DNA from: Myxococcota bacterium
GTDB lineage: Bacteria > Myxococcota > Polyangia > GCA-2747355 > JAKLHH01
Direction of reading: 5' to 3'
NCBI GenBank assembly: GCA_022710245.1
Contig: JAKLHH010000434.1
Span: 1-6,641 of the forward strand
DNA length: 6,641 nt
A model generated the notes under the pieces. The model saw nothing but the letters and a program-made list of their open reading frames with translations, searched no databases and was not told the origin of the DNA. Position 1 is the first letter of the stretch; the number at the start of each line of letters is the position of its first letter. This document shows, piece after piece, positions 4,952 to 6,241 of the stretch. The translations under genes and the position numbers were made by a program.

Positions 4952-6241
4952 TCAGCGCGGGCGACGCCCGACGAGCAGCCCGAGGAGCAGCAGCAGCGCC
5001 GGCACGAGGGAGGCGACGAGGCCCGCGCGGGCGCTGATGGTGCAGCCGCCGCCGCCCATGGGACGGAAGTCCGGCTTGCAGGGGTCGGTCTCGCCCGGAT
5101 CGACCACGCCGTCGTGGTTCGCGTCCTCGACCCCGTCGGGCAACCCGTCGCCATCGCTGTCCGGGTTCTGCCAGTCCGTGCAGCTCTGCTGCTCGAGCGC
5201 GTCGGGCAGCCCGTCACCGTCCCGGTCGGGCGGCCCCGCGTCCGGCCCCGCGTCCGGCTTCACCAGCCCGCCGTCGTTGTGCGGCTTGTGCACCGGATCG
5301 GGGCACCCGTCGCGGTCGTCGAAGCCGTCGTAGTCCTCGGGCTCGAGCGGGCAGAGGTCGCGGCCGTCGCCGATCCCGTCGCCGTCGGTGTCCGGCTTGC
5401 AGGGGTCGCTCTCGCCCGGGTCCACCTTCCCGTTGCCGTTCTTGTCCTCCTGCCCGTCGAGGAGCCCGTCCCCGTCGCTGTCCGCGTTCAGCGGATCCAG
5501 ACACGCGTGCCCCTTCTCGACCACGTCGGGCACCCCGTCGTGGTCGGCGTCGTCCTCGGGGCAGCCGTCGCCGTCCTGGATGCCGTCGTAGTCCTCCGGC
5601 TGGGTGGGGCACGTGTCCTTGCCGTCGGGGATCTTGTCGCCGTCCGTGTCCGGGCGGAGCGGGTCGGACTCGCCGGGGTCCACGGCGCCGTTGCCGTTCG
5701 TGTCCTCCTGCCCGTCGAGGAGCCCGTCCCCGTCGCTGTCCGGGTCGCGCGCGTCGGTCTCTCCTGGATCGACCACGCCGTTGCCGTTCGCGTCCTCGAC
5801 GGCGTCCGGGACCTGGTCTCCGTCGGAGTCCACGTCGCGGAAGTCGGGGATGCCATCGCCGTCGGTGTCAACGGGCGGCGTCGCGACGTCGCCGTCGCCC
5901 GCCTCGATGGCGTCGAAGATGCCGTCGCCGTCGCTGTCCAGGTCGAGCACGTCGGGGACGCCGTCCCAGTCGGTGTCGGTGCCCGCCGGGCCCTCGTCCC
6001 CGTCGGCGATCTTGTCGCCGTCGCTGTCGATCGGGTCGGCCCCCAGGGAGCCAGGGAGCGCGACCAGCGCGAGGAGCAGCGTCAGCGCGACGATGGCGGG
6101 TCCTCGCGGCCTCCGGCCGCTCCGGGATGAGACCCCCGCAATTGCGGGTCCTCGCGGCCTCCGGCCGCTCCGGGATGAGACCCCCGCAATTTGCCCTGCT
6201 CGCCTCCTCCGGAGGCTGCGCGGTGAAGGGCAAATCCTCAT
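4952..6241 (-). CDS. Thrombospondin type 3 repeat surface protein with MYXO-CTERM-like anchor
   Basis: A 429-residue acidic, probably calcium-binding, cell-surface protein. The ATG at 6241 overlaps the upstream stop as ATGA and has AGGAGG with a 7-nt spacer. Residues 3-49 are encoded by three in-frame palindromic repeats and are Arg/Pro/Ser-rich. The signal-peptide core follows at 50-66 (IVALTLLLALVALPGSL), with cleavage near residue 68. Residues 72-390 hold about twelve DxDxDGxxD type 3 loops (for example DSDGDGIFD, DTDGDGIPD) and four EF-hand-like DxNGNGxVDPGE loops. Cys pairs in DTCP, GCP and DLCP contexts could form disulfides. The C-terminus is tripartite: GGGGC with Cys400, a hydrophobic helix at about 407-424, and RRPR (426-429). 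This is the layout of MYXO-CTERM tails, which are processed by myxosortases. The upstream partner is an OmpA-family gene. Type 3 repeats bind calcium in other families; here that is inferred. The ligand and role are unknown. Confidence 0.9.
   Translation of the reverse strand: MRICPSPRSLRRRRAGQIAGVSSRSGRRPRGPAIAGVSSRSGRRPRGPAIVALTLLLALVALPGSLGADPIDSDGDKIADGDEGPAGTDTDWDGVPDVLDLDSDGDGIFDAIEAGDGDVATPPVDTDGDGIPDFRDVDSDGDQVPDAVEDANGNGVVDPGETDARDPDSDGDGLLDGQEDTNGNGAVDPGESDPLRPDTDGDKIPDGKDTCPTQPEDYDGIQDGDGCPEDDADHDGVPDVVEKGHACLDPLNADSDGDGLLDGQEDKNGNGKVDPGESDPCKPDTDGDGIGDGRDLCPLEPEDYDGFDDRDGCPDPVHKPHNDGGLVKPDAGPDAGPPDRDGDGLPDALEQQSCTDWQNPDSDGDGLPDGVEDANHDGVVDPGETDPCKPDFRPMGGGGCTISARAGLVASLVPALLLLLGLLVGRRPR
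5443..5742 (-). repeat. Internal duplication in the TSP3 gene (86-codon module)
   Basis: A 42-base sequence at 5443-5484 recurs exactly at 5701-5742, offset 258 bases or 86 codons. At protein level residues 168-253 and 254-339 are two versions of one module. Each runs from a DSDGDGLLD loop through an NGNG loop and a type 3 loop to a PEDYDG...DGCP segment. Partial copies of its first 30 residues start at 138 and 361. The near-identity of the DNA implies recent duplication or gene conversion. Confidence 0.8.
6093..6142 (-). repeat. Palindromic unit 3, in frame in the TSP3 gene
   Basis: A 50-base palindromic unit. It matches unit 2 exactly over a 48-base period (6096-6143 equals 6144-6191). The inner stem is 6106-6111 with 6115-6120 around a TCC loop. 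The outer arms are 6093-6102 and 6131-6142, with one mismatch at the outer edge (ATGGCGGG against CCCGCAAT) and two extra C in the right arm. It encodes residues 34-49. Confidence 0.85.
6141..6190 (-). repeat. Palindromic unit 2, in frame in the TSP3 gene
   Basis: Outer arms ATTGCGGGTC (6141-6150) and GACCCCCGCAAT (6179-6190) pair apart from two extra C. The inner stem GCGGCC (6154-6159) with GGCCGC (6163-6168) is perfect around a TCC loop. CTC separates the stems on the left and a 10-nt bulge ending TGA on the right. It shares AT dinucleotides with both neighbours and encodes residues 18-33. Confidence 0.88.
6189..6235 (-). repeat. Palindromic unit 1, in frame just after the TSP3 start
   Basis: Outer arms ATTTGCCCT (6189-6197) and AGGGCAAAT (6227-6235) are a perfect 9-bp inverted repeat. 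The inner stem GCCTCC (6202-6207) with GGAGGC (6211-6216) closes a TCC loop. GCTC lies between the stems on the left and a 10-nt bulge ending TGA on the right. It has the skeleton of units 2 and 3 with different stem sequences. It encodes residues 3-17, starting four bases after the start codon. Confidence 0.85.

What the first reader, a model, noticed from the sequence alone, without database searches (positions are those of the whole stretch)
6093..6235. Tandem in-frame palindromic elements at the start of a surface-protein gene
Three palindromic units of 47-50 bases lie head to tail, sharing AT dinucleotides at their junctions, right after the TSP3 start codon. Their steps are 45, 48 and 48 bases, all multiples of three, and the coding frame through them has no stop. 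Each begins with an Ile codon (I3, I18, I34), and the downstream sequence resumes at I50. Palindromic elements inserted in frame in coding genes are known from Rickettsia (RPE). I know of no such case described for this kind of bacterium, but could not search.
Basis: partly seen in the sequence, partly recalled or inferred. Interest (0 to 1): 0.85.

Follow-up and report, generated by a model that had tools for sequence, protein, structure and literature searches.

The report
In-frame palindromic insertions in a gene
Three short self-complementary DNA units sit in frame inside the signal-peptide codons of a bacterial surface-protein gene, and look-alike units with a very similar core occur in large numbers, some of them inside genes, in two other genomes from a related bacterial group.

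Summary
Three nested palindromes (47, 50, 50 nt) lie head to tail at 6093-6235 (minus strand), sharing AT, in frame after codon 2 of a TSP3-type gene. U1 and U2 keep 14 of 14 named pairs while 7 differ on both sides. Removing 141 nt leaves MRIVALTLLLALVALPGSLGA, an ordinary leader. None of 14 orthologues has the insert. It is a frame-preserving insertion, probably removed with the signal peptide.

The source genome is not held, so own-genome copy number is unknown. A covariance model from the window's units led to two genomes in the class of its nearest relative (G035, G423) with 144 and 57 matches to a shared core pattern, control 0; the other 181 of 183 genomes had 0-2. U2 matches their consensus at 16 of 18 unpaired positions. 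Eleven of 57 units inspected read through ORFs, one inside a Mur ligase, some in tandem 57 bp (19 codons) apart. The tests for GTAG, CGTC and Rfam families fail.

Best reading: a REP/RPE-like palindromic family, probably of Myxococcota, that inserts in coding DNA; a new variant of a known kind. Homology of U2 to the G035 family is likely, not proven; the mobiliser is unknown.

The parts
4952..6241 (-). TSP3-type (DxDxDG repeat) secreted/surface protein gene, 429 aa, carrying the insertion in its signal peptide
   Evidence: ORF; orthologues P0002-P0015 at 55-67% identity, some with PF02412 or PF18884; Pfam scan of this protein itself gave 0 families
6095..6235 (-). 141-nt in-frame insertion (47 codons, 13 Arg, no acidic residue) between AGG and ATC of the original leader
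   Evidence: Joined flanks read MRIVALTLLLALVALPGSLGADPIDSDGD; 24 residues before DxDxD against 21-36 in 13 relatives
6189..6235 (-). U1, palindromic unit 1, outer stem ATTTGCCC/GGGCAAAT, inner hairpin GCCTCC-GGA-GGAGGC
6141..6190 (-). U2, palindromic unit 2, outer stem ATTGCGGG/CCCGCAAT, inner hairpin GCGGCC-GGA-GGCCGC
   Evidence: core similar to the G035/G423 family
6093..6142 (-). U3, palindromic unit 3, near-identical tandem copy of U2 with one broken outer pair
   Evidence: (98% over 48 nt)
6249..6254 (-). Shine-Dalgarno-like AGGAGG, 7 nt before the ATG
   Evidence: read directly
6238..6641 (-). upstream gene, end of an OmpA-like protein with KGKPAST repeats, overlapping the TSP3 gene by ATGA; an OmpA-like gene also precedes the orthologue in G001 and G301
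   Evidence: ORF; relatives L101, L102; OmpA label by resemblance to those, Pfam gave 0 families

Best explanation
The 141 nt are a tandem array of three copies of a short REP/RPE-like palindromic element that inserted at an AT in codon 3 of the gene. Shown: the units are palindromic, related to each other with compensatory changes, in frame, absent from orthologues, and placed before the hydrophobic core of the leader. Inferred: one unit arrived first (U1 or the U2 type), a second followed, and U2 was duplicated recently to give U3. Insertions that broke the frame would have killed the gene, so only lengths divisible by three (45, 48, 48) remain. The insert is tolerated because it lengthens the n-region of a leader that is cut off, so the mature protein is unchanged. 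Also inferred: it belongs to, or is a close cousin of, a dispersed element family seen here in two other genomes, whose copies also sit in coding DNA. What moves it is unknown.
For: Palindromes and compensatory change. Clean leader after removal and 14 orthologues without the insert; at DNA level G001 (a further orthologue), G301 (the same protein as P0007) and G305 (P0012) also lack it. Start codon. Family: R1, built only from U1-U3, gave 14 hits in G035 and 10 in G423; 19 of 289 class genomes had any hit. Pattern counts 144 and 57, control 0 in both; the other 181 genomes together 23 matches against 9 control matches. U2 against the family core: 16 of 18 unpaired positions and 4 of 6 inner pairs identical; 0 of 400,000 random hairpins with the same structure and GC did as well, best 17 against 20. 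One outer family pair is G-C in 29 and T-A in 21 of 54 units. In-ORF copies: a Mur ligase where the PDB relative 4bub has a 21-residue gap, CtaA, a PQQ-like protein in both genomes (tandem, 57 bp), a PMT-like membrane protein, three linkers. Direct repeats of 6 nt or more lie exactly 57 nt apart around 6 of 22 single copies; at each of the 27 other distances from 48 to 75 the count is 0 or 1.
Against: No copy elsewhere in the 6.6 kb window (next best E 0.98 apart from U2's own reverse strand) and the source genome is not held, so mobility of the window's own family is unproven. The model's scores in G035/G423 (up to 30.7 bits) do not exceed the best lone hits in the 289 genomes (34.6 bits in G431, 31.4 in G471); homology rests on copy number, architecture and the core match, and the core pattern was written to fit both. 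The core pattern from U1/U2 was absent from viral contigs and genome contigs. The four genomes of the nearest order showed no copies. Steps differ (45/48 with a shared AT against 57), and the window reads the core in a codon phase that a TGA closes in the family consensus.
Confidence: 0.78

Rival explanations
1. A local tandem-repeat (minisatellite) expansion of palindromic DNA in this gene only, by replication slippage, unrelated to any dispersed element.
For: U2 and U3 are near-identical tandem copies; no other copies in the window; source genome unknown.
Against: U1 and U2 differ at 7 of 14 pairs with pairing kept, which slippage does not explain; units with a very similar core are dispersed in G035 and G423.
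Confidence: 0.12
2. A cis-acting RNA control: hairpins starting right after the start codon (from nucleotide 7 of the gene) damp translation, with translation coupled to the upstream gene through the ATGA overlap.
For: RNA hairpins of -24.2, -25.8 and -23.0 kcal/mol right after the ATG; ATGA overlap.
Against: No orthologue of 14 keeps it; no Rfam family. Does not explain the in-gene copies in G035/G423. Could be a side effect of the insertion rather than its reason.
Confidence: 0.06
3. Selected protein feature: the Arg-rich 47 residues give the leader a special n-region and the palindromes are a by-product of codon choice.
For: 13 Arg and no acidic residue in 47; the units share a similar peptide.
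Against: Not conserved in 14 orthologues; pairing kept through two-sided changes; G035/G423 units with a similar core encode another peptide in another phase.
Confidence: 0.03
4. Assembly artefact of one metagenome contig.
For: Only one contig of 7765 bp holds the protein; near-identical tandem units are hard to assemble.
Against: Frame and leader are intact and the units resemble an independent genome family.
Confidence: 0.04

Closest known systems
Rickettsia palindromic elements (RPE)
   Same: Palindromic, inserted in frame in ORFs, tolerated in real proteins (PMC10969869 passages; PMC3733652, which also reports repeat clusters coding for 43-82 aa in Thauera and R. conorii).
   Different: Units here step by 45-48 nt (57 in G035/G423), are GC-rich, nested (outer stem plus inner GGA hairpin), in tandem sharing AT; no CGTC tag; not a Rickettsia. 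No direct sequence comparison with RPEs was made.
GTAG REPs (with RAYT transposases)
   Same: Short inner stem-loop with 2-3 nt loop and short unpaired sides like GTAG-1; high copy number in G035/G423; some REPs are intragenic.
   Different: No GTAG; U1 alone has GCAG, which fits the degenerate GYAG; U2, U3 (GGAG) and the G035 consensus do not. Extra outer stem; head-to-tail tandem units; no RAYT link shown.
CGTC REPs
   Same: Outer stem of 8-9 bp with A-T pairs in first and second position, as described for CGTC stems.
   Different: No CGTC tag or CCA tail (the CGTC after U3 is original coding sequence and in the wrong orientation); 31-34 nt with a second hairpin instead of a 4-5 nt loop.
Enterobacterial small mobile repeats RU-1 to RU-3
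   Same: Small mobile repeats carrying ORFs and found inside genes (PMC2759123, title and start of abstract in a listing only).
   Different: 103-168 bp, other phylum; sequences not compared.
Palindromic amphipathic repeat coding sequences (PMC2996958)
   Same: Palindromic repeats in coding DNA, in tandem, spread between organisms (title and start of abstract in listings only).
   Different: Not compared by sequence; described there as intragenic tandem repeats of Mollicutes and other microbes.

Membership tests
Rickettsia palindromic element (RPE) | palindromic DNA | tested here: met
Rickettsia palindromic element (RPE) | in-frame insertion in an ORF, absent from orthologues | tested here: met
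   0 of 14 orthologues have it
Rickettsia palindromic element (RPE) | many dispersed copies in the same genome | not testable with these tools
   source genome not held; seen only in G035/G423 look-alikes
Rickettsia palindromic element (RPE) | about 150 bp length, or the CGTC end of RPE-4/-6 | tested here: not met
   units 47-50 nt, array 141-143 nt; no CGTC tag in the right place (features)
GTAG REP | terminal GTAG (or GYAG, GYRG, GTRG, GTMG, GTGG) beside the stem-loop | tested here: not met
   U2 and U3 have GGAG, the G035 consensus GGAA; U1 alone has GCAG, which fits GYAG (variants)
GTAG REP | RAYT (Y1) transposase beside the repeats | not testable with these tools
   Y1 matches in G001 (12) and G312 (1), none in G301 and G305; R1 found no unit at 12 of those loci; the source genome is not held and G035/G423 were not validly tested
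CGTC REP | CGTC/TGTC/CCTC tag and short loop | tested here: not met
REPIN/BIME | units in opposite orientation | tested here: not met
   all three on the same strand, head to tail
family of G035/G423 units | core TCxxCCCGGA-stem6-GGA-stem6-GAGGA inside a variable outer stem | tested here: met
   U2: 20 of 24 scored positions; U1 weaker: 13 of 18 unpaired, 4 of 6 pairs
family of G035/G423 units | 57-nt step and direct repeats 57 nt apart | tested here: not met
   window steps are 45, 48, 48 with a shared AT; family step 57 in 13 of 18 tandem gaps
any Rfam family | match at gathering score | tested here: not met
   0 matches

The most novel reading that the evidence does not exclude
Myxococcota harbour their own superfamily of protein-coding palindromes, independent of Rickettsia: nested two-stem elements with a conserved CCCGGA...GGA...GAGGA skeleton whose insertions tend to be multiples of three (45, 48, 57 bp), so that they can spread through leaders, linkers and even enzyme domains, adding 15-19-residue modules to proteins.
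Probability: 0.5. Interest if true: 0.82.

Novelty: new variant of a known kind. Interest (0 to 1): 0.7.

Why it matters
In-frame spread of palindromic DNA is a proposed route to new protein segments, argued most strongly from Rickettsia, an AT-rich parasite with a shrinking genome (recalled). A GC-rich family in genomes of 5-6 Mb, with over a hundred copies in one of them and copies inside a Mur ligase and other proteins, would suggest that the process does not depend on genome decay. The exact 57-nt direct-repeat spacing gives a testable insertion mechanism.

Tried and rejected
Core patterns in viral contigs and genome contigs: 0. BLAST of the insert against plasmids gave 4 weak matches that I take for chance, phages none. 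Protein searches with the insert peptide found only the window's own protein or nothing; they see only proteins of certain lengths. Loose core pattern in 235 genomes: 33 matches in 27 genomes against 9 control matches, 1-2 per genome; I looked at six of them and saw no family, and overlooked then that two lay in G035. Shorter pattern in 8 genomes: 105 matches against 49 control (G001 39 against 11), not followed up one by one. Two model hits in the order of G001 I read as coding DNA without the palindromes. A 14-mer scan of parts of G301, G001, G305 (370, 209, 160 kb) showed no high-copy family, only one palindromic 14-mer at 6 places in G301 and two repeats in G001. R1 found no units at 12 Y1 transposase loci of G001 and G312. 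The tblastn for Y1 proteins in G035/G423 stretches used wrongly chosen query frames and is void. A translation start after the insert was considered (AUC with GAGGA before it) and rejected: no ATG/GTG/TTG.

Dropped rows: two units at contig or stretch ends were left out of the ORF test, and one search listed only frames of 200 aa or more; 3 of 57 units were left out of the pair table for missing or N arms; 3 of 25 single copies near ends were left out of the direct-repeat tables. One search, which let repeats start inside the arm, gave 57 nt for 8 of 22; one search is the stricter count with a control and is the one I use (6 of 22 at 6 nt; 7 of 22 at 5 nt, where the other distances reach 4). 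P0014 and P0002 are counted among the 14 orthologues as lacking this insert. In one search I chose ORFs in the phase that reads ARPPGT first; other phases were looked at.

Full report
What is there. The window is a piece of a single 7765-bp contig; no whole genome is held for it. By its S9 peptidase the nearest loci include MAGs titled Myxococcales (L003, 54%) and Myxococcota (L005, 52%), besides Hymenobacter and Cytophagales at 53%. By the TSP3 gene it is nearest to G001, the genome of L003 ('Myxococcales bacterium HKST-UBA02'; 65%), the only one of 282 genomes of that phylum draw to pass E 1e-60, and to G301 and G305 (65, 64%) among 289 of the class. The aspartyl-protease gene points elsewhere (G267 46%, G084 49%), so the placement in Myxococcota is likely but the order is not known. 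An OmpA-like gene precedes the TSP3 gene in G001 and G301 too. On the minus strand the gene 6241-4952 starts with AGGAGG, 7 nt, ATG, and its ATG overlaps the stop of the upstream gene. After codon 2 come three palindromic units, U1-U3, stepping by 45, 48 and 48 nt and sharing AT.

Is it real. Each unit is a nested palindrome: an outer stem of 8 pairs (9 in U1; one broken in U3), unpaired sides, and a 6-bp inner hairpin with loop GGA. U1 and U2 are related (29 of 47 identical with one gap; 0 of 5000 shuffles reached it; 18 of 24 scored places against a best of 17 among 400,000 random hairpins). Yet 5 of the 8 outer and 2 of the 6 inner pairs are changed on both sides with pairing kept; sliding the structure by one to three columns drops paired cells from 97.6% to 36-48%. 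With only two independent rows, and a gap that I placed by hand, this is strong but not a tree-based test. A nested palindrome alone is not rare in such GC-rich DNA (14 of 60 shuffled windows had at least one, the highest count equal to the window's 4); the array of related units is what is unusual.

It is an insertion. Fourteen orthologues at 55-67% identity were found (P0002-P0015; the search scored 7978 candidates and listed 120 of 381 passing). None has the 47 residues. Twelve have 25-36 residues before the first DxDxD; P0016, a more distant relative, has 21; P0014 is a longer fused frame with an ordinary leader inside; P0002 has 54, a different extension. The window has 71, and 24 once 141 nt are taken out: MRIVALTLLLALVALPGSLGADPIDSDGD. 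The insert codes for 13 Arg and no acidic residue. No ATG, GTG or TTG lies in frame between the ATG and codon 70. So the array almost surely extends the n-region of a Sec-type leader. That it is then cleaved off is inference from the intact hydrophobic stretch and the LGA motif (recalled consensus); no leader predictor was run.

Does it have relatives. A core pattern from U1 and U2 was not found in viral contigs or genome contigs. A covariance model R1 from U1-U3 gave only two weak matches in the four genomes of the order of G001, which I read as coding DNA. In 289 genomes of the class it gave matches at E up to 0.05 in 19; two stood out with many: G035 (14) and G423 (10), with only 20 candidates scored per genome. 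By score these are not better than some lone hits (34.6 bits in G431, 31.4 in G471, against 30.7), so the scores alone prove nothing. What they hit is a high-copy family: pattern CCCGGARCNNCCGGAGGNNGYGAGGA, up to 2 mismatches, occurs 144 times in G035 and 57 in G423 with 0 control matches in either, while the other 181 of 183 genomes of that order have 0-2 (23 in all, against 9 control matches). The pattern was written to fit both U2 and the first G035 units.

The G035/G423 family. I located 57 units (35 of 144 and 22 of 57) in fetched stretches, chosen mostly because they held listed matches. Consensus TGC[G/T]CG-TCCGCCCGGA-ACCGCC-GGA-GGCGGT-GAGGAAACGG-CG[C/A]GCA. The variable outer pair is G-C in 29 and T-A in 21 of 54 units, mismatched in 4. 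Tandem steps: 57 in 13 of 18, else 56, 59, 59, 61, 81. Around single copies, direct repeats of at least 6 nt that start left of the outer arm lie exactly 57 nt apart in 6 of 22 (GCAGCTGC, GCAGCTGCTC, GCAGGTGC, CGCACC, GCAGCTGCGC, GACGCAA), while each of the 27 other distances from 48 to 75 gives 0 or 1. This suggests that one insertion adds 57 nt, 19 codons; the other 16 of 22 show no such repeat.

Copies inside genes. Eleven units at nine places read through an ORF with some coding support. A Mur ligase has hits to Mur_ligase_M and Mur_ligase_C on the two sides (L256); the second-best PDB relative 4bub has a 21-residue gap there, while the aligner splits the gap in the best one, 8f5d. CtaA carries it near the N-terminus (L213). 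A PQQ-like protein has two tandem units near its C-terminus in both genomes (L214, L248; Pfam scan of L214 24.5 bits, below its 27.6 cut-off). A PMT-like membrane protein reads it in another codon phase (L251; 25.0 against a 26.1 cut-off). Three proteins without Pfam hits carry it in linker-like stretches (L208, L210, L216, two of them lipoprotein-like by eye). In XseA the unit lies in an N-terminal stretch and a GTG start after it cannot be excluded (L207). The Mur ligase frame lacks the N-terminal Mur domain. The other 46 units are unclassified: some lie just after a stop codon (L199, L209), others near possible 5' ends of genes (L201 cellulase, L203, L253, L255, L258). I did not measure the in-gene share against chance, and the consensus is open in five of six frames, so an open frame alone means little.

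Is the window's unit the same family. U2 and the family core agree at 16 of 18 unpaired positions and 4 of 6 inner pairs; of 400,000 random hairpins with that structure and 72% GC none reached 20 of 24 (best 17). U1 agrees at 13 of 18 and 4 of 6. Allowing for perhaps hundreds of repeat families looked at implicitly, I judge common origin likely (about 0.75) rather than shown; convergence on a good hairpin remains possible. Outer stem, spacing (45/48 with AT against 57) and codon phase differ, so at best it is a sister subfamily.

How it works. Shown: in-frame, palindromic, lineage-specific insertion; a near-identical tandem pair. Inferred: transposition or copying of a hairpin-forming strand into DNA, recent duplication of U2, survival only of frame-preserving events in genes, tolerance in leaders and linkers. 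The array may also slow translation (hairpins of -23 to -26 kcal/mol directly after the ATG), softened by coupling to the upstream gene; untested.

What is known. PMC3733652 (passages, Results part 1 of 4 and section 15 read) describes GTAG and CGTC REPs, notes intragenic copies in several species, clusters coding for 43-82 aa in Thauera and R. conorii, and warns that N-terminal cases may be misannotated starts. PMC10969869 (passages) summarises RPEs. One Ogata paper was tried and not held. The tags that define GTAG and CGTC families are absent in U2, U3 and the G035 family (U1 alone has GCAG, a fit to the degenerate GYAG), Rfam gives nothing, and RPE sequences were not compared. So it works like an RPE or intragenic REP but cannot be filed as a member of either. 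The rows listed by searches of open-licence papers showed no description for this phylum.

Noticed in passing
window 6343-6490: The upstream gene (minus strand) has in-frame 33/30-bp tandem repeats coding for KGKPASTPAVA-like units.
   Followed up: no
window about 4175-4232: The 3718-4377 minus-strand ORF carries a short tandem VKSAAVKSAAVKSA repeat.
   Followed up: no
orthologue P0002 (DNA not held): This orthologue has its own unrelated N-terminal extension (MRRCSVPIFCRSTSPEIWEEGGGLPPWARP...) at the same place; it could be another insertion or a wrongly called start.
   Followed up: partly
L103/L165 (G305), reverse strand from about 1300: Two CGTCATTCCCGC... stretches of the CGTC REP kind, one of them a full palindrome, lie just downstream of the TSP3 orthologue in a kin genome.
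   Followed up: partly
L203 (G035) ORF 499-2106 minus; L201 (G035) ORF 844-2070 minus: Family units stand directly before or within the leader of a beta-helix protein and a cellulase, much as in the window; starts not settled.
   Followed up: partly
L166-L177 (G001, G312): G001 has 12 Y1 (RAYT-type family) transposase matches and G312 one; the unit model found nothing at the 12 loci fetched.
   Followed up: yes
window 4952-5060 (minus strand): The TSP3 protein ends in GGGGC, a hydrophobic stretch and RRPR, like C-terminal sorting tails of myxobacterial surface proteins (recalled, not searched).
   Followed up: no
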